This document shows, one piece after another, positions 134 through 7,950 of a DNA stretch of 64,000 bases. Origin of the DNA: Microlunatus sp. Gsoil 973. GTDB taxonomy: Bacteria; Actinomycetota; Actinomycetes; Propionibacteriales; Propionibacteriaceae. The number at the start of each line of letters is the position of its first letter. The first letter of the stretch is position 1. The stretch is taken from assembly GCF_009707365.1 (NCBI RefSeq), contig NZ_CP046122.1, positions 868,001-932,000 on the forward strand. The letters run 5' to 3'. A program made the position numbers and the translations under genes. Under the pieces are notes generated by a model that was not told where the DNA came from, ran no database searches, and worked only from the letters and a program-made list of their open reading frames with translations.

Positions 134-531
134 TCTTTCGCTTGACGCGTGAGCCGTTCGTCGGCCTCCAGCGGCAACACGAATCCCTCAAGCTGTGTGA
201 ATCCGATCCGTATGACGCCCCGTTTGGGGCATCGGAGCCGGGCGGGTCTAACGGACAACCCGGTGTGAAGCAGGAAAATTCGCCCAGCCGACGTCTCATT
301 AGGGGAACGATCACCGGGCAGGGAACCTTGGTCGGACGCGGAGCTGGCAGGGTCAGCTGACCCGGGTGACGTCTTTGCCTGAAATCGCGAGCGATGGCTC
401 TGGCCGGGGCTGGTGGGGGCTCTTTGGTCATGGAGATGTGGCTGCTGGTGTGAGGATTCGTCTCGGCGTGCGTCTTAACGGTTGAGAGCGGAATGCAACA
501 TCGTGCGTGCCGCGGATCTAAGGAGTTTCAG
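134..531. other. Gene-free stretch with small hairpin and repeat end
   Basis: I see no convincing gene here. Positions 217-230 (GCCCC-GTTT-GGGGC) form a short hairpin that could help end transcription of the DUF2469 operon, although no T-run follows. Positions 305-325 carry the GATCACCGGGCAGGGA motif that ends the 130-bp repeat found at 6298 and 10131. The promoter of the Asp23 operon should lie in the last 100 bases, but I cannot place -35/-10 boxes with confidence. Confidence 0.6.
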
Positions 532-1044
532 ATGAGTGAGTCCACGACGACTCGACCGGTCACCGGTGAGGAGCAGCGCGCTGTTTCGGCTGCGGCGAAG
601 GCGGCTGAGCCGGATCAGAAGCAGTTGGATGATCTACACACGATTTTGGGCGATACGACCATTGCGGACACCGTGGTGCAGAAGATTGCCGGTCTTGCTG
701 TACGGGAGGTGCCGGGCGTGTACGCGATGGGCAATGTTGCTCGACGCGCGTTCAACAATCTGTCACAGCGTGTTCCCGGCACCGGGCAGCCGAGTGTGAC
801 TGGTGGGGTCGCGGTGCAGAAGGGTGAGCGAGAGACCGCCATCGATGTGTCGATCGTTGTCGAGTACGGCGCTCGGATCGCCGAGGTGTCGCAGGACATT
901 CGGGAGAACGTCATCCGGGCTGTCGAGGGCGGTACCGGGTTGTCGGTGGTGTCGGTTGATGTCGATGTCACGGACGTTCATCTGCCCGAGGATGACGACG
1001 ATTCCGCTGGTGGTCAGACCAGCTCTGATGAACAACTCCGCTGA
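532..1044 (+). CDS. Asp23/Gls24 family envelope stress protein (first copy)
   Basis: A 170-residue soluble protein with a central Asp23/Gls24 domain (about residues 40-155; TVVQKIAGLAVREVPGV then a beta-rich segment ending VVSVDVDVTDV) and an acidic C-terminal tail. Asp23 proteins of Gram-positive bacteria gather at the membrane through the anchor AmaP and take part in envelope homeostasis. I chose the ATG at 532 because AAGGAG lies 6 bases upstream (520-525); an in-frame ATG at 493 lacks such a site. It is the first gene of an operon that also encodes an AmaP-like anchor and an ECF sigma factor. Confidence 0.88.
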   Translation: MSESTTTRPVTGEEQRAVSAAAKAAEPDQKQLDDLHTILGDTTIADTVVQKIAGLAVREVPGVYAMGNVARRAFNNLSQRVPGTGQPSVTGGVAVQKGERETAIDVSIVVEYGARIAEVSQDIRENVIRAVEGGTGLSVVSVDVDVTDVHLPEDDDDSAGGQTSSDEQLR

Positions 1045-1159
1045 GTTTCCCGGTCGCGTGAGCGGGCCGGCGCCGATCTCTCAGACTGACCGGTCGGCGT
1101 TTGGACTTTCCGACGAGTTCGGTAGGTCGAATCCATCGACCGGTGTCAGGAGGATTGAA

Positions 1160-1342
1160 ATGTCTCGTACCACGATTGCCTTGTTTGTCGGGCTCGTTCT
1201 GGGCGTGACGGCGGCGTTTGGTGGCTTCGGGCCGTTCTTGATTGTGGCGGTGTTCGGTGCGGTCGGTTTGATCGTCGGGCTGGTTCTGGATGGCCGGATC
1301 GACTTGCCACGTCTGCTGGGTCGGGCGACGGAGCGCCGATGA
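1160..1342 (+). CDS. Small membrane protein, DUF2273-like, of the Asp23 operon
   Basis: A 60-residue protein that is almost entirely two hydrophobic helices (residues 5-22 and 24-43) with a basic tail. The ATG at 1160 follows a strong CAGGAGG site. Small DUF2273-type membrane proteins of this size commonly sit between Asp23 paralogues and amaP in Gram-positive bacteria. Its stop overlaps the ATG of the next gene (ATGA at 1339-1342), so translation is probably coupled. The family assignment rests on size, topology and position; a membrane-anchoring role is inferred. Confidence 0.72.
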   Translation: MSRTTIALFVGLVLGVTAAFGGFGPFLIVAVFGAVGLIVGLVLDGRIDLPRLLGRATERR

Positions 1343-1773
1343 TGTCCACCGGGATCAGGTATCCGAGCGACGATGGTCGGCTGGGTGCGGGCGGGTCTGG
1401 GCCGGAAGTGCCCGCGCGGTTGCGTGGTCGGGTACAAATCCCTGAGCGGGTGGTGCAGCGGATCGCGGCCCAGGCTGCTTCCGAAGTGGCCGCCTCCGGT
1501 GGTCGATCGGGCGGTTTCCTTGGTATCGGCGAGCACACCGACCTGGATGCGCGCCCGGAGGTCAAGGTCGACTTGTCCAGCGATGCAGTCCATCTGGCGA
1601 TCGAGCTGGCGGTGGAGTATCCGACGTCGCTGCGGTCAGCAACTCAGCGGGTCCGAGATCATGTCACCGAGCAGGTGCAGCAGCTGACGGGGATCGGTGT
1701 CGGCCGAGTCGACATCGACATCGTTGCCGTCGGGGAACGCAGACAAGAGCAGAGCGCGGGGGCCTTGCGATGA
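1339..1773 (+). CDS. Asp23/Gls24 family envelope stress protein (second copy)
   Basis: A 144-residue Asp23/Gls24 protein: a disordered N-terminus, then VQIPERVVQRIAAQAASEV and the typical amphipathic strand-helix-strand block ending GIGVGRVDIDIVAVG. It is more divergent than the first copy, having a Gly/Ser loop (SGGRSGGFLGIG) near residues 52-63. Start and stop overlap the flanking genes by four bases (ATGA), so the five genes from 1160 to 3025 are nearly gapless. By family it should be a cytoplasmic, membrane-recruited scaffold. Confidence 0.82.
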   Translation: MMSTGIRYPSDDGRLGAGGSGPEVPARLRGRVQIPERVVQRIAAQAASEVAASGGRSGGFLGIGEHTDLDARPEVKVDLSSDAVHLAIELAVEYPTSLRSATQRVRDHVTEQVQQLTGIGVGRVDIDIVAVGERRQEQSAGALR

Positions 1774-2348
1774 CCCGCCGGGCACCCGGGCTGCAGCGTC
1801 GCCCCAGCCGAACCGTGCCGGCATCGATCGCTGCCGGTGTGCTGACAGTCGCCGGTGTGTTGATCGTGCTTGTCGGCGTTTGGCGCCTGATCGACGGTAC
1901 GTGGCCGGCACCGGCGCAAGCTGTCCTGGGGTACCTGGCCAAGATCTCGTGGGGATCCACCGGCTGGTTGATCTTCTGTATCGGCGCAGCCGTTCTCGGC
2001 CTGATCATGATCATCGCCGGCGCCACACCGGGCCGCTACAACGCTGCCCGCATCGGCACACGTATCGGCACAGGCTCCACGCCTGGCACGACGCCCGAAA
2101 CGGAGTTCGTGATCAGCCGCCGGGGCATCGCCCGGCTCGCGGCAGCCCACGCGGATCTGGTCGATGGGGTGGAGTCGGTGACGGTCAAGGCCGGCGCCCG
2201 GCGGGTCCGGGTCTCGGTCGGCACCACATCTCGGCACACGGGCGACATCGCCCAAGCCGTCACCGTCGCAGTCCAGGCCGCGTTGACCGATGCCGGACTC
2301 AGCCCGGTGCCGCGGATCAACACCACGGCCTGGACGAAGGAGATCTGA
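1770..2348 (+). CDS. DUF6286-like membrane protein with an Asp23-like C-terminal domain
   Basis: A 192-residue protein with two transmembrane helices (about residues 17-38 and 64-86) followed by a roughly 90-residue cytoplasmic domain. That domain has the helix-strand-strand-helix-strand pattern seen in Asp23 (ISRRGIARLAAAHADLVDGV, then VRVSVGTTS and a final helix). Proteins of this design are found in actinobacterial Asp23/AmaP operons. It overlaps both neighbours. I infer that it anchors the Asp23 proteins at the membrane together with the next gene product. Confidence 0.7.
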   Translation: MTRRAPGLQRRPSRTVPASIAAGVLTVAGVLIVLVGVWRLIDGTWPAPAQAVLGYLAKISWGSTGWLIFCIGAAVLGLIMIIAGATPGRYNAARIGTRIGTGSTPGTTPETEFVISRRGIARLAAAHADLVDGVESVTVKAGARRVRVSVGTTSRHTGDIAQAVTVAVQAALTDAGLSPVPRINTTAWTKEI

Positions 2349-3025
2349 TGCGCTACCTCGCCTCCGGGGTCAATCGCGCCTGGCTGATCATCATCGGAGT
2401 GGTGTTGCTCGTTGCCGGGCTGCTCGGGACGCTGATTTCGCAGGACGGACTGCAACAGGCCGCAGCAGCAATCGGCCTGAACCTGAACCGTCCCGGCCCC
2501 GATGACACCATTCTTAGCCCCGCGGCTGTCTCTTGGCTGAATGATCCTCTGGGCGTGCTCAGCGTGATCATCGTCGGTGTGCTGTTGTTCCTCGCCGGGC
2601 TGGCATGGCTGGTCCGTCAGATTCCGCGGCGCGGGTTGGCTCAACCGTTCCGCTTGCACGACGACGTCCGATCCGGCATCACCCAGGTGGACAGCCAAAC
2701 AGTGTCTGATGCCGTGCGTCGGCAGGTCGAGTCGTTTCACGACGTCAGCCAAGTCGTAGCCCAGCTACGCGGCACTGCGCGGGACCCCGAACTCAGCCTC
2801 AAAGTCACAGCCGACGAACGGGCCGACATCGGCCAGCTGCTCAGTCTCATCCAGACAACCGTGATCGCTGACCTGCAGACAGCATTGGACACCGACGTAG
2901 CCCGGCTCGCAGTCCAACTGGAGATCGGTCGCGGACATACCAGCGCCGGCCACGTCACCCTCCCCGCCGGCCCATCCACCAGCGCACCAGCCATCACCAG
3001 CACCGGACGCGGAGCACGAACGTAG
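2348..3025 (+). CDS. amaP: AmaP-like alkaline shock response membrane anchor
   Basis: A 225-residue protein with two transmembrane helices (about residues 10-28 and 70-92) and a cytoplasmic domain from about residue 100, including LKVTADERADIGQLL and a C-terminal Ser/Thr/Ala-rich tail. This is the topology of AmaP, which tethers Asp23 to the membrane. The ATG at 2348 shares one base with the preceding stop. The gene for the ECF sigma factor follows after a 136-base gap. The name is by analogy; sequence identity to firmicute AmaP is likely low. Confidence 0.7.
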   Translation: MRYLASGVNRAWLIIIGVVLLVAGLLGTLISQDGLQQAAAAIGLNLNRPGPDDTILSPAAVSWLNDPLGVLSVIIVGVLLFLAGLAWLVRQIPRRGLAQPFRLHDDVRSGITQVDSQTVSDAVRRQVESFHDVSQVVAQLRGTARDPELSLKVTADERADIGQLLSLIQTTVIADLQTALDTDVARLAVQLEIGRGHTSAGHVTLPAGPSTSAPAITSTGRGART

Positions 3026-3161
3026 AGTGAACAAGGGAGCCCAGTCGCGTTCGCGACGGACCGGCAGCCATTCAAGCTCGCGCACGGCACACCGCCAACT
3101 GCCCCTCGTCATGCCGTCCCTGGTCCAGCGCATGGGCACCCGCAAGGCAGAGGAGGGCCAG

Positions 3162-3767
3162 ATGAGCCCCACAATTGCCAGTCCGCCCGGTCCCACGGCG
3201 CAACACCGTCCTGTGGAGTCGGTGAACTGGGATGAGACAACACTGGTCGTCCGCGCCCAGGCCGGAGAGGTTGCCGCCTTCGAATTTCTCGTCGACACCT
3301 ATGAGGCACCGCTGTACCGACTCGCGGTCCGCCTCTTGCGGAACCGCACGATCGCCGAGGACGTGCTGCAAGAAGGATTCATCGCCGCCTGGAGGAAACT
3401 CCCGACCCTGAACGCACCCGAAACGTTCAGAGCATGGATCTACCGGATCATCACCCGCCGGTGCCTGGACCAACTCCGCGCAAGCCGCGACCAGCTCCAA
3501 CTCGACGAGACCAACGGCGGAAACACCACCAGAGCCGGTGATACCGACCCGGCCATCACTGTCGAGACCGAGCAGCTGCGACACAGCCTCAACCGCGCCC
3601 TCACGGATCTTCCGCCGCAACTCAGAGTCTGCTGGATCCTCACCGAAGTCGACCAACTCAGCTATGCCGACATCTCCCAAGTGCTCGACCTGCCGGTCAG
3701 CACCGTACGCGGGCGGCTCGCACGCGCGCGCCACCAACTCGCCGAAGGAATGGCCTCATGGCGATGA
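3162..3767 (+). CDS. ECF-type RNA polymerase sigma factor
   Basis: A 201-residue sigma-70 family protein with only regions 2 and 4. Region 2 covers roughly residues 30-100 (FEFLVDTYEAPLYRLAVRLL through DVLQEGFIAAWRKL, then the DNA-contacting WIYRIITRRCLDQL). Region 4 covers roughly 140-198 (LPPQLRVCWILTEVDQLS, then the helix-turn-helix YADISQVLDLPVSTVRGRLA). I chose the ATG at 3162 because GAGGAGG lies just upstream; the frame is open to 3027 without a better site. The last 10 bases overlap the next gene, which encodes a zinc-finger candidate anti-sigma factor. Targets probably include this operon, but no promoter was identified. Confidence 0.9.
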   Translation: MSPTIASPPGPTAQHRPVESVNWDETTLVVRAQAGEVAAFEFLVDTYEAPLYRLAVRLLRNRTIAEDVLQEGFIAAWRKLPTLNAPETFRAWIYRIITRRCLDQLRASRDQLQLDETNGGNTTRAGDTDPAITVETEQLRHSLNRALTDLPPQLRVCWILTEVDQLSYADISQVLDLPVSTVRGRLARARHQLAEGMASWR

Positions 3768-4381
3768 CCAACCACGCGAACCCGCAAGGACCACGTCAGC
3801 ATGACGCGTTCCTGCCCTGCGGCCGATCCGTGGATGAAACCTGGGAAAACATCAGCCAGCCGCCCGACCCACACCAGCTCACCTGCCCGTTCTGCCGCGA
3901 TGCCCGCGCCGCCCTGCAACGGCTACAGCAGGCGACCCAGGACCTCCTCGCCCACGACACAACCGATCCCGACTTCCACGTCAGCCCACGAATCAAGAGA
4001 TCGGTGCTGGAGGTCGCCCGCAACGAAGCCCGCCGCAGCCGGATGCTTCCCCTGATTCAACCGAGCATCGGCCAGCCCAAGCCGACCCTGACCATCAGCG
4101 AACTCGAACTATCCAGCCAAATCCGCGACGCAGCCGATCAACTGCCCGGAATCCACGCACGCCGCTGCGTCGTCACCATCGACCCAACCGGCGACACGAG
4201 TCAGCACACGGAGAAACCGGCATCCATCACCATCAACCTGCGGACCGCCGTCAGCGCCCAAACCAACATCCCCCAAGCCATGACCCAGCTACGCCGAACC
4301 ATCATCGACCGAATATCCCGCCGGGCCGGGCTAACCGTCACCACCATCGAGGTGCACGTGGAGGACATCTACGATGCCTGA
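3758..4381 (+). CDS. Zinc-finger (ZAS-type) anti-sigma candidate fused to an Asp23-like domain
   Basis: A 207-residue soluble protein. The N-terminus carries C21 and then H39-x3-C43-x2-C46, the exact HX3CX2C signature of ZAS anti-sigma factors such as RsrA, with the fourth ligand at similar spacing. A linker follows, and residues about 105-205 form an Asp23-like unit (ISELELSSQIRDAADQLPGI through TVTTIEVHVEDIY). It overlaps the sigma gene by 10 bases, the classic sigma/anti-sigma arrangement. I infer that it holds the sigma factor inactive and senses the state of the Asp23-AmaP assembly through its own Asp23-like half. No transmembrane helix is present. Codon choice is rich in A and C compared with neighbours. 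Confidence 0.75.
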   Translation: MAMTNHANPQGPRQHDAFLPCGRSVDETWENISQPPDPHQLTCPFCRDARAALQRLQQATQDLLAHDTTDPDFHVSPRIKRSVLEVARNEARRSRMLPLIQPSIGQPKPTLTISELELSSQIRDAADQLPGIHARRCVVTIDPTGDTSQHTEKPASITINLRTAVSAQTNIPQAMTQLRRTIIDRISRRAGLTVTTIEVHVEDIYDA

Positions 4382-4724
4382 CCCCATCCACCCACCCCAG
4401 CCGACCAGTCCCACCCCGATCCCGGAACTGGCCCAGATCATCACCGACGCGATCAGCGCGACAACCGGCGTGCACCGCATCGAAGCCAACCTCGCCCAAG
4501 CGATCGGCCACCTTCACCGATCAACCCCAGCCCAAAACAGCCAAGTCATCCTCACCCAAAGACCAACACGCACCAACGCAAAACTCGACATCAGCATCCT
4601 GACCAACCAAACGGCATATCAAACAGCCCAAGACGTCCGACGCACGATCAACAACCTGCTGACCAGACACGGCCACACCCCCGGCACCATCACGATCAAC
4701 ATCATCAAAATCTGCGTCACCTGA
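4374..4724 (+). CDS. Small Asp23-like protein ending the sigma operon
   Basis: A 116-residue protein with a Pro-rich N-terminus (DPIHPPQPTSPTPIPE) and then a compact alpha/beta unit: ELAQIITDAISATTGVHRI, a strand around KLDISIL, helix TAQDVRRTINNLL and the final strand GTITINIIKI. This mirrors the Asp23 pattern of the upstream proteins, without the zinc finger. It overlaps the previous gene by eight bases and shares its A/C-rich codon use, unlike the G/C-rich start of the operon. The function is unknown; it may compete with or complete the Asp23 assembly. Confidence 0.6.
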   Translation: MPDPIHPPQPTSPTPIPELAQIITDAISATTGVHRIEANLAQAIGHLHRSTPAQNSQVILTQRPTRTNAKLDISILTNQTAYQTAQDVRRTINNLLTRHGHTPGTITINIIKICVT

Positions 4725-5400: not shown

Positions 5401-6129
5401 ATGCGTGCGCAGGATCCCGGGGACAGATTTGCTGCGGTTGCCCGCGAATTGGCCGACCTCCCGGCCGGCGACGTACTCGACCGCGTGGCCGAGCTCGCTG
5501 TCGAGGTCATTGACGGCTGCGACCATGCCGGCGTCAGCCTGGTCCACCGAGGCAAAATCACGACCGTCGCCGCCACCGACGAGGTCGTCGTCACTGGCGA
5601 CAAGCAGCAGTACGCCTTCAACGAGGGACCCTGCCTCCAAAGCCTCGGCGAACACGAAACGGTCAGCTCCCCCCAGTTGAGCACTGATGACCGGTGGCCA
5701 AGGTGGGCCCGGTGGGCAACTGAACACCTGGGAATTGGCAGCATCCTCTGCTTCCAGCTGTTCACCAGCGAGCATTCCTACGGCACCCTGAACCTGTATT
5801 CAGACCGGGTCATCGCCTTCGACGGCCACGACGAGGCTGTCGGTTTGGCATTGGCCGCGCACACAGCGGTGGCAATCGCGGCCAGGCAGTCGATCGAGGG
5901 CCTCTCCAGCGCCGTCCGAAGCCGGACCGTGATCGGTCAAGCCGAGGGAATCTTGATGGAGCGTTATCAACTGTCGGCCGCACAAGCCTTCGCCGTGTTG
6001 GTCAGAGTCTCACGCGATGAGAACCGCAAGCTGATCCGGATCGCCGAGGAACTCGTCGACACACGGAAGACTCCCGGGACTCCAAACTCGTCTGCATCAA
6101 CGCCAACCGTCGACCCCCGAACAGGCTAG
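5401..6129 (+). CDS. GAF-ANTAR transcription antitermination regulator
   Basis: A 242-residue regulator with an N-terminal GAF sensor (about residues 10-165; FNEGPCLQSL and YGTLNLYSDRV are typical) and a C-terminal ANTAR RNA-binding domain (about 172-227; VIGQAEGILMERYQLSAAQA). ANTAR proteins bind paired RNA hexaloop hairpins and prevent termination; the actinobacterial GAF-ANTAR type is common. A ligand is not evident. No obvious operon partner exists: the next gene lies on the other strand more than 300 bases away. The ATG at 5401 has no strong Shine-Dalgarno sequence. Confidence 0.88.
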   Translation: MRAQDPGDRFAAVARELADLPAGDVLDRVAELAVEVIDGCDHAGVSLVHRGKITTVAATDEVVVTGDKQQYAFNEGPCLQSLGEHETVSSPQLSTDDRWPRWARWATEHLGIGSILCFQLFTSEHSYGTLNLYSDRVIAFDGHDEAVGLALAAHTAVAIAARQSIEGLSSAVRSRTVIGQAEGILMERYQLSAAQAFAVLVRVSRDENRKLIRIAEELVDTRKTPGTPNSSASTPTVDPRTG

Positions 6130-6445: not shown

Positions 6446-7126
6446 TCAGTAGCGGCCTCCTTGCCAGGTGGCCAGGCAGACCCTGTTGCCGTCCGGATCC
6501 GCGAGCACCCAAAACGTTGGTGCCGCCGCGTCGCTGACCAAGGTTCCTCCGGCAGCCAGCGCGGCATCGATGCGCGGCCGGGCCTGGGCCGGATCAATGT
6601 AGATGTCGGGGTGGAATCGCTGCCGAGGTTCCTCGCTGCCGGAGCGTTGGAACCAGATCGGCGGCATCGCCTGGCCGTGATCGACAACATCGGCGCACTC
6701 GCCGGGGTCGGTGTAGTCACCGCCGTACACGGCAGCCCAGAAGGGTCCCAGCCGGTCCTGGTCCGGAGTGTCCAGGCCGAGTTCGATCTGGGAGACGGTC
6801 CGGCATTCGAGCTCGGCGCCCACATCCGCCGCGATCGCTGACACCTGGCGGGCCAGCTCCACGTCGACCGAGCTGACGCCGCCCACCGACGGGCTGCATA
6901 GCCTCACGTCGACGCGGGAGGGACGGAGATCGATCTCGACTTCATGAGCACGTTCTTCGGCTGCCGCGGCGATCCTCTCGGCTACTCGATGGCCGCGGGA
7001 GAAGTCACCGGTGTGGATCCTGGCGTGCAGCCGGTGCAGCCCGTAGAAGTTGAGCAGTCCCCAGCCGTCCAGCCCGGCATCGACGATCTGTTGCCCGGTC
7101 AACCGTTCCGCCGTCATGCTCGTCAC
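6446..7126 (-). CDS. DCoH-like plus VOC (glyoxalase/bleomycin-resistance fold) protein
   Basis: A 226-residue protein. Residues about 5-100 resemble the pterin-4a-carbinolamine dehydratase (DCoH) fold (LTGQQIVDAGLDGWGLLNFY, RGHRVAERIAAAAEERAHEVE). Residues about 112-226 are a VOC domain (IELGLDTPDQDRLGPFWAAV, FWVLADPDGNRVCLATW). VOC domains often bind a metal and hydrophobic small molecules; no substrate can be read from the sequence. Its ATG at 7126 overlaps the stop of the upstream minus-strand gene by four bases; an alternative ATG lies at 7117. Two other proteins in the window (39070 and 54494) repeat this DCoH-VOC design. Confidence 0.75.
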   Translation of the reverse strand: MTSMTAERLTGQQIVDAGLDGWGLLNFYGLHRLHARIHTGDFSRGHRVAERIAAAAEERAHEVEIDLRPSRVDVRLCSPSVGGVSSVDVELARQVSAIAADVGAELECRTVSQIELGLDTPDQDRLGPFWAAVYGGDYTDPGECADVVDHGQAMPPIWFQRSGSEEPRQRFHPDIYIDPAQARPRIDAALAAGGTLVSDAAAPTFWVLADPDGNRVCLATWQGGRY

Positions 7127-7950
7127 TGTCCCTTAACGTTGTCGAGCGTGCAAGGACTGGAATGACAACGCCTTTCAGTGGCAGTCGACATTTCAGGTCC
7201 GCATGCAGCTGGTCGAAGAGCAACGGCGCGCCGAGGATGACGACCGGAAGCTCTGGCCAACGGGTCGACCGCCTGCCCATGCCACGCCCGGCGAGTCCCG
7301 GCGGCCCGTACCACGATCGGGCTGCGGTCGGTCAGTTGGCGATCCGCGCGGCCCACAACCGGCTGCCCTGGACCGGTCAGCTCTCCAACCGCGCTCGCCC
7401 GACCGGCAATCGCCATCAACATGGCTTCTGCCGGTCCAGCAACCTCCGGTCCCGAACCGTGGCTCCAATCCAGGTCGCTCGCCGTCAGGCCCACGCCGCG
7501 GACGATGTGCCACGCCGGCAACTCCGGGCTGCACACGCAGTCATTCAACGCCTGACGCAACCGGTCAGCGGGGATCTGGCGTGGCAAACCCAGCGGGCGA
7601 CGGATGTCCTGGTGATGGATGATGACATCCAACAGGGCGAGCCTGCCCCCAAAGCTCGCGGCCAACCCTTCTGGCCGCAGATGCGCCCGGAGCCTATCCA
7701 AAAGCTGTTGGGCACTCAGCGGTGCCAGTTCATCAACAAACACTTGGTTGGCGTGAACAATTCGACCGCGGACGACGCGGCGCAACATGCCAACCAGACT
7801 GACTTTGTCGAAGCTCGTCACATGAGCGACCACATCCCGAACCCGCCAGCCCTCACATAGCGACGGCGCGTCCCATTGCTCCGGTGTCAGAGTCGCCAGC
7901 AGATCGGCCAGCTCTGTCCGCTCGGCTGTCGCCATCTCGACAAAGTTCAA
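7123..7950 (-). CDS. Maleylpyruvate isomerase N-terminal-like (DinB superfamily) protein
   Basis: A 275-residue protein of the actinobacterial maleylpyruvate-isomerase-like family: TAERTELADLLATLTPEQWD, SLCEGWRVRDVVAHVTSFD and ALLDVIIHHQDIRRPLGLPR contain the conserved helices and the His residues that bind metal in DinB folds. The likely start is the TTG at 7950, since GGAGGTGA lies 6 bases upstream; an ATG occurs five codons later. The last 70 or so residues are Arg-rich and unlike the family, which suggests a late frameshift. Even so, the stop overlaps the next ATG. Family members act in mycothiol- or thiol-linked chemistry, but the substrate is unknown. Confidence 0.75.
   Translation of the reverse strand: MNFVEMATAERTELADLLATLTPEQWDAPSLCEGWRVRDVVAHVTSFDKVSLVGMLRRVVRGRIVHANQVFVDELAPLSAQQLLDRLRAHLRPEGLAASFGGRLALLDVIIHHQDIRRPLGLPRQIPADRLRQALNDCVCSPELPAWHIVRGVGLTASDLDWSHGSGPEVAGPAEAMLMAIAGRASAVGELTGPGQPVVGRADRQLTDRSPIVVRAAGTRRAWHGQAVDPLARASGRHPRRAVALRPAACGPEMSTATERRCHSSPCTLDNVKGQ

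What the first reader, a model, noticed from the sequence alone, without database searches (positions are those of the whole stretch)
532..4724. Asp23/AmaP operon with an ECF sigma factor and a zinc-finger anti-sigma fused to an Asp23 domain
Eight closely packed genes hold two classical Asp23 proteins, a small membrane protein, a DUF6286-like and an AmaP-like membrane protein, an ECF sigma factor, and then a protein with the complete ZAS signature (C21, H39-x3-C43-x2-C46) followed by an Asp23-like half, plus a free Asp23-like unit. By overlap with the sigma gene the ZAS protein should be the anti-sigma factor. If its Asp23-like half joins the membrane-bound Asp23 assembly, the assembly itself could act as the stress sensor that releases sigma. 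I know of Asp23 operons and of ZAS anti-sigma factors; a direct coupling of the two through one polypeptide is the unusual part.
Basis: partly seen in the sequence, partly recalled or inferred. Interest (0 to 1): 0.88.

Follow-up and report, generated by a model that had tools for sequence, protein, structure and literature searches.

The report
Anti-sigma factor fused to Asp23
Some actinobacteria carry a conserved gene cluster in which a gene-switch protein (sigma factor) is paired with its likely inhibitor, and that inhibitor carries a copy of the Asp23 building block of a protein layer under the cell membrane, so the layer may report on itself; this is predicted from sequence and not yet tested at the bench.

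Summary
In detail: eight genes at 532-4724, an ECF sigma overlapped by 10 nt by a 207-aa protein with C21, H39-x3-C43-x2-C46 and an Asp23-like half, then a free Asp23-like protein. It is conserved. In wide loci 49 of 49 full-length homologues sit directly behind the same sigma gene, 44 with a 10-nt overlap. In the family 29 of 32 genomes with Asp23 have the pair; the 166 without Asp23 give no match. An ECF-like promoter, GTGACG-N15/16-CGTC, lies upstream of 34 of 46 Asp23 operons (about 2 expected), here at 450-474. Zinc ligands are incomplete in 11 of 49 homologues that keep sigma and the Asp23 half, so zinc redox is unlikely to be the general signal. Thermobifida alba fuses sigma to helix 4 plus the Asp23 half. 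Best reading: a sigma/anti-sigma pair controlling the Asp23 operon, the Asp23 half reading the membrane Asp23/AmaP assembly. Sigma binding and docking are inferred; the anti-sigma fold is only weakly supported. Asp23-family anti-sigmas beside ECF286/ECF292 were already predicted in print: a new variant of a known kind.

The parts
450..474 (+). ECF-like promoter element GTGAGG-N15-CGTC, starting 82 nt upstream of the first asp23 start codon
   Evidence: the element is found upstream of 34 of 46 related asp23 operons at >=10/11 match
532..1044 (+). Asp23 protein A (170 aa)
   Evidence: Pfam Asp23 3.6e-26
1160..1342 (+). small membrane protein, DUF2273-like (60 aa, one hydrophobic segment)
1339..1773 (+). 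Asp23 protein B (144 aa)
   Evidence: Pfam Asp23 6e-12
1770..2348 (+). DUF6286 membrane protein (192 aa, two hydrophobic segments)
   Evidence: Pfam DUF6286 2.2e-22
2348..3025 (+). AmaP-type membrane anchor (225 aa, two hydrophobic segments)
   Evidence: NCBIfam NF033218 60.5 bits, cut-off 55
3162..3767 (+). ECF sigma factor (201 aa)
   Evidence: Sigma70_r2 7e-19, r4_2 6.9e-12
3758..4381 (+). putative anti-sigma factor: ZAS-type N-domain plus Asp23-like half (207 aa), overlaps sigma by 10 nt
3803..4042 (+). N-domain, residues 16-95: C21, H39, C43, C46; predicted helices 25-30, 38-42, 44-69, 77-92
4091..4378 (+). Asp23-like half, residues 112-207 (alpha-beta-beta-alpha-beta, pLDDT mostly above 90)
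4374..4724 (+). free Asp23-like protein C (116 aa), usual third gene of the sigma/anti-sigma unit
   Evidence: Pfam Asp23 0.017; called behind the anti-sigma gene in most loci

Best explanation
A sigma/anti-sigma pair dedicated to an Asp23 envelope module. The sigma factor transcribes the Asp23 operon from a GTGACG-N15/16-CGTC promoter; where, as here, the sigma gene lies downstream on the same strand, this may also feed back on sigma itself. The 207-aa protein is its soluble, class-I-like anti-sigma factor: the N-terminal helices around C21/H39/C43/C46 would hold sigma region 4 and helix 77-92 region 2. Its C-terminal Asp23-like half is the input: it docks on, or copolymerises with, the Asp23/DUF6286/AmaP layer under the membrane, and loss, saturation or rearrangement of that layer changes the grip on sigma and so adjusts Asp23 supply. 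Shown by sequence comparison: gene anatomy, pairing, overlap, motif conservation, promoter element, association with Asp23, dispensable zinc ligands, one natural sigma-Asp23 fusion. Inferred: that this sigma reads the element, sigma binding, docking on the layer, direction of the signal.
For: Pairing: 49 of 49 full-length homologues found in 50 wide loci have the sigma gene directly upstream, overlap -10 in 44, -22 in 3, -4 in 2 (starts were picked as nearest to the sigma end). In a class survey 23 of 23 (21 by script, the other two seen; one repeats a locus). Co-occurrence: Asp23 in 32 of 198 family genomes; 29 have the pair (one, G495, with the partner split over two frames), 2 lack it, 1 (G021) was not fetched; the other 166 give no match to the partner model. 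Promoter: >=10/11 upstream of 34 of 46 asp23 operons against 4.8% of first-order Markov resamplings, 4 of 46 on the opposite strand; in loci not used to find it 8 of 18 against 4.2%, 2 of 18 on the opposite strand. The two operons of genomes without the pair reach 8/11. Anti-sigma character: NCBIfam 'antisigma' NF052375 matches 77 of 106 homologues at E<=0.1, best 4.3e-8; best solved-structure match of the N-domain profile is RslA, E 0.051. Asp23 half: Pfam Asp23 in 69 of 106 at E<=0.1. Fusion: a Thermobifida alba sigma is joined in frame to helix 4 and the Asp23-like half. Literature: in S. aureus Asp23 is held at the membrane by AmaP, forms filaments in vitro, and loss of either induces the cell-wall stress response (PMC6954212, passages).
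Against: No binding is shown. The window protein itself does not match NF052375, nor do three relatives tested (L021, L022, L024); where it matches, scores are far below the curated cut-off (27 against 100 bits), and only 5 of 22 isolated N-domains match. Foldseek found no anti-sigma structure for the N-domain model. RslA's E of 0.051 is followed by an unrelated zinc finger at 0.71, so it may rest on the Hx3Cx2C alone. Profile comparison with RsrA: P 0.0075, 0.0047 and 0.0018, but 0.35 for the nine zinc-poor sequences alone, and one column permutation scored far better for no reason I can give. The promoter element is rare upstream of sigma itself (5 of 50), is seen in only 1 of 9 operons of family f92, scores 8/11 also in two operons that have the pair, and its own-genome count, 48 against 34 in the control, resolves no regulon. 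Two genomes have the Asp23 operon without the pair. The fusion is known from one lineage only, with DUF6286 below cut-off in its C-terminal part. Genes in one operon are co-inherited whatever their function.
Confidence: 0.6

Rival explanations
1. Redox switch: zinc held by C21/H39/C43/C46 is lost on thiol oxidation, as in RsrA or RslA, and releases sigma; the Asp23 half only places the protein at the membrane.
For: Complete ligand set here and in 38 of 49 homologues (window included); HxxxCxxC is the ZAS signature and RslA and RsrA respond to redox stimuli (PMC2877774, passages).
Against: 11 of 49 homologues lack a complete set, and three class-survey loci (L204, L205, L207) keep the cysteines without the His, all with sigma and Asp23 half retained; zinc and non-zinc class I domains mix within groups and a structural role of zinc is suggested (PMC7406223, part 1 of section 6 and passages).
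Confidence: 0.2
2. Partner switch: the free Asp23-like protein at 4374-4724 is the mobile part; it competes for the Asp23 half of the anti-sigma and so acts as anti-anti-sigma.
For: It is the usual third gene of the unit and overlaps the anti-sigma gene by 8 nt here.
Against: No binding data; weak Pfam match (0.017); not called downstream in some loci, for example L120-L122.
Confidence: 0.12
3. The 207-aa protein is not an anti-sigma factor but a specialised Asp23 subunit or a sigma co-activator that happens to be translationally coupled to sigma.
For: No structural match of the N-domain to known anti-sigma folds; no NF052375 match for the window protein; the Thermobifida sigma is fused to the Asp23 half without the ZAS region.
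Against: Conserved overlap and order sigma then partner, Hx3Cx2C, four predicted helices, NCBIfam anti-sigma similarity of 77 of 106 relatives.
Confidence: 0.08

Closest known systems
ECF286 and ECF292 sigma groups with soluble Asp23-family putative anti-sigma factors (Casas-Pastor 2021, seen only as cited in PMC8999054)
   Same: ECF sigma encoded beside a soluble Asp23-family protein predicted to be its anti-sigma; the review's examples are from Streptomyces and Mycolicibacterium
   Different: The review passages give no ZAS domain, no link to the structural Asp23/AmaP operon and no promoter; group membership of this sigma was not tested
ZAS anti-sigma factors RsrA, RshA, RslA, ChrR
   Same: Cys/His plus Hx3Cx2C in an N-terminal helical domain, encoded near an ECF sigma gene; ChrR also has a separate C-terminal sensory domain
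   Different: C-to-H distance 18 here against 26 in the RsrA relatives; the C-terminal domain is Asp23-like, not cupin; ligands lost in several lineages; fold similarity not demonstrated
Asp23/AmaP module of Staphylococcus aureus (PMC6954212, passages)
   Same: Asp23 and its membrane anchor AmaP from one operon (DUF2273 there is recalled, not from a call)
   Different: No ECF sigma or anti-sigma in the S. aureus operon (recalled); DUF6286 and two further Asp23-like proteins here
SigX/CfrX/CmpX/OprF mechanosensing system of Pseudomonas aeruginosa (PMC8999054, passage)
   Same: Soluble anti-sigma proposed to act within a membrane complex that senses envelope stress
   Different: Different proteins; no Asp23 and no ZAS mentioned there

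Membership tests
ZAS / class I anti-sigma domain | Hx3Cx2C with an upstream Cys or His ligand | tested here: met
   window protein; 20 of 20, 38 of 49
ZAS / class I anti-sigma domain | four helices, three in a bundle and a fourth after a linker | tested here: inconclusive
   AF2 predicts helices 25-30, 38-42, 44-69, 77-92 but Foldseek and VIA list no anti-sigma structure
ZAS / class I anti-sigma domain | sequence-profile similarity to known anti-sigma families | tested here: inconclusive
   NF052375 in 77 of 106 relatives, below cut-off, not in the window protein; RslA E 0.051; RsrA hhalign P 0.0018-0.0075, 0.35 for zinc-poor sequences; Pfam zf-HC2 in 1 of 106
ZAS / class I anti-sigma domain | gene next to its ECF sigma gene | tested here: met
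   49 of 49, 23 of 23
ZAS / class I anti-sigma domain | binds and inhibits the sigma factor; binds zinc | not testable with these tools
   needs biochemistry
Asp23 (PF03780), C-terminal half | Pfam model score | tested here: inconclusive
   window protein 25.6 bits against cut-off 28; 69 of 106 relatives match at E<=0.1; L036, with a CGADM..CVHC N-terminal part and an Asp23 half, scores 62 bits
ECF286 / ECF292 | group profile match of the sigma factor | not tested
   the group profiles are not in the libraries used and the classification paper was not held
AmaP (NF033218), gene at 2348 | NCBIfam cut-off 55 bits | tested here: met
   60.5 bits

The most novel reading that the evidence does not exclude
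The membrane-bound Asp23/AmaP polymer is itself the sensor: the anti-sigma factor is a modified Asp23 subunit that is built into the polymer, and the state of the polymer (free ends, loss from the membrane, free Asp23 pool) decides whether sigma is held, giving a feedback loop in which a cytoskeleton-like layer counts and repairs itself.
Probability: 0.38. Interest if true: 0.82.

Novelty: new variant of a known kind. Interest (0 to 1): 0.63.

Why it matters
The molecular function of Asp23 is called unclear in the paper seen (PMC6954212, passages). A dedicated sigma/anti-sigma pair with an Asp23 domain inside the anti-sigma gives a genetic handle: a reporter on the 450-474 element would read out what the Asp23 layer senses. 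It would also be a further case, after the one studied system named in PMC8999054 (CfrX/SigX), of a soluble anti-sigma tied to a membrane complex.
Full report
Check of the observation. All eight genes are present at the stated coordinates, on one strand and mostly overlapping or close. Family scans give two classical Asp23 proteins, a DUF2273-like small membrane protein, DUF6286, an AmaP above its NCBIfam cut-off, an ECF sigma factor with regions 2 and 4, and two further Asp23-like proteins, the first with C21, H39, C43 and C46 in its N-terminal part. The Asp23 match of the 207-aa protein is just under Pfam's cut-off (25.6 against 28 bits), and that of the last gene is weak (E 0.017).

Is it more than chance. 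A search with the 207-aa protein found it in 15 of 40 genomes, the own one included. In 20 aligned sequences C21, H39, C43 and C46 are invariant. In 106 of the 111 database proteins, among them Nocardia, Kribbella, Amycolatopsis, Pseudonocardia and Streptomyces, C21, C43 and C46 are invariant and H39 is at least 90% conserved. A class-wide draw found matches covering both halves in 40 of 394 genomes and a phylum-wide draw in 9 of 396 (counted from the listed rows, model start at or before 16 and end at or after 177; the lists are capped, weaker rows unseen; three of the 40 rows carry a stop inside the match). One of these, L036, is from another class of the phylum and has a clear Asp23 domain (62 bits) behind CGADM...ICVHC.

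Neighbourhood. In the window and 49 other wide loci (L021-L029, L089-L128), fetched because they held a match to the partner or to Asp23, the set asp23A, DUF2273, asp23B, DUF6286, AmaP, sigma, ZAS-Asp23, asp23C recurs, in some loci with parts not called. It is collinear as here, or the sigma unit is divergent from the Asp23 operon; both arrangements occur in Microlunatus flavus (L021), the Arthrobacter loci are divergent, a Humibacillus MAG is collinear. All 49 full-length partners have the sigma gene directly upstream, 44 with exactly 10 nt overlap; 23 of 23 in the class survey as well, one of them a repeat. In the window's family, Asp23 occurs in 32 of 198 genomes. 29 of these have the pair, one with the partner gene split over two frames; two (G434, G436) have the Asp23 operon alone; G021 was not fetched. 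The 166 genomes without Asp23 give no match to the partner model. Within the genus, 10 of 20 genomes have Asp23 and the pair and 10 have neither.

Promoter. Upstream of asp23A many loci share GTGACG, a 15-16 nt spacer and CGTC, the layout of an ECF promoter. With the fixed consensus, 34 of 46 operons score at least 10 of 11 (first-order Markov expectation 2.2), 13 of them 11 (expectation 0.12), against 4 of 46 on the opposite strand. The two operons of genomes without the pair reach only 8, as do two operons with it. In 18 further loci 8 reach 10 or more (expectation 0.76), 2 on the opposite strand: 7 of 9 outside family f92, 1 of 9 within it. The window copy is at 450-474. Upstream of sigma the element is rare (5 of 50). 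So the Asp23 operon is the likely main target; that this sigma reads the element is inferred from the association.

Structure. The AlphaFold model (pLDDT 84) has helices 25-30, 38-42, 44-69 and 77-92, a short linker and an alpha-beta-beta-alpha-beta domain 112-207. The fourth helix follows the ligand region as in class I anti-sigma domains, whose first three helices bind sigma region 4 and whose fourth binds region 2 (PMC7406223, passages). No solved anti-sigma fold was found with the isolated N-domain. Sequence links are suggestive, not strong: RslA is the best match of the N-domain profile in the PDB (E 0.051; an unrelated zinc finger follows at 0.71); NCBIfam 'antisigma' matches 77 of 106 relatives, below its cut-off, but not the window protein; RsrA aligns with all four ligands in register at P 0.0075 and 0.0018, but 0.35 for the nine zinc-poor sequences alone and with an imperfect control.

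Zinc is not universal. Eleven of 49 homologues lack a complete ligand set: L100, L101-L105, L112-L115 and L128. L204, L205 and L207 keep the cysteines but not the histidine. All keep the sigma gene and the Asp23 half. In L206, whose product is identical to P0112 of Thermobifida alba (a cluster of 4 sequences), a single open frame runs from sigma regions 2 and 4 into the helix-4 and Asp23-like parts with no ZAS region; no other of the 33 proteins found covers both parts. Together these point to the Asp23 half, not the zinc site, as the constant and probably sensory part. ZAS-like proteins without an Asp23 half next to an ECF sigma also exist (L044, L049), so the two parts are separable modules.

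Mechanism. In S. aureus, Asp23 is held at the membrane by AmaP, forms filaments in vitro, and loss of either protein induces the cell-wall stress response (PMC6954212, passages). An anti-sigma factor carrying an Asp23 unit, made from the cluster that makes Asp23 and AmaP, would let the cell read the state of that layer and adjust its supply. This is inference; the direction of the signal is open.

What is known already. PMC8999054 (passages) states that groups ECF286 and ECF292 are encoded next to soluble Asp23-family proteins predicted to be anti-sigma factors, without experimental data. This locus probably belongs to that general kind; group membership was not tested. What I did not see in the listings of six paper searches is the ZAS part, the link to the structural Asp23 operon, the promoter, the repeated loss of zinc ligands, or the natural fusion.

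Verdict. Real, conserved and functionally suggestive; a new variant of a known kind that, by the review, has no experimental data; interest 0.63.

Noticed in passing
L206 (whole ORF on minus strand 1474-3165; sigma to Asp23 part 1477-2376): ECF sigma fused in one frame to the helix-4 and Asp23-like part of the anti-sigma, without the ZAS region; identical to database cluster P0112, annotated as sigma factor of Thermobifida alba.
   Followed up: partly
L044 1480-1818, L049 678-1010: Short ZAS-like proteins (L044: LPCGADLDAL...HQAGCPHC) behind an ECF sigma gene with no Asp23 domain and no Pfam match at 0.01, in genomes outside the window's class.
   Followed up: partly
L038-L043, L047: In seven loci of one genus of large genomes a gene divergent from the Asp23 operon starts at the linker and keeps the Asp23-like half but has no ZAS part; no homologue of the window's sigma detected within the 1.5 kb flanks.
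   Followed up: partly
L101-L105, L113-L115, L128: Homologues without the zinc ligands (for example LDGHT.EEL..YLD.GR...SIE.SPGCQ) still paired with the sigma gene.
   Followed up: yes
L116: Partner gene is split over two frames in one genome of a genus where seven others have it as one open frame; cause not determined.
   Followed up: no
L093: A second sigma/anti-sigma pair in genome G018 with no Asp23 operon within the fetched 8 kb.
   Followed up: no
[not shown]
   Followed up: partly
window 5401-6126: GAF plus ANTAR protein (ANTAR 1.8e-17) downstream of the operon.
   Followed up: no
window 6446-7123 (minus) and 7123-7947 (minus): A pterin-4a-carbinolamine dehydratase domain joined to a glyoxalase-like domain, next to a mycothiol maleylpyruvate isomerase N-domain protein.
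   Followed up: no
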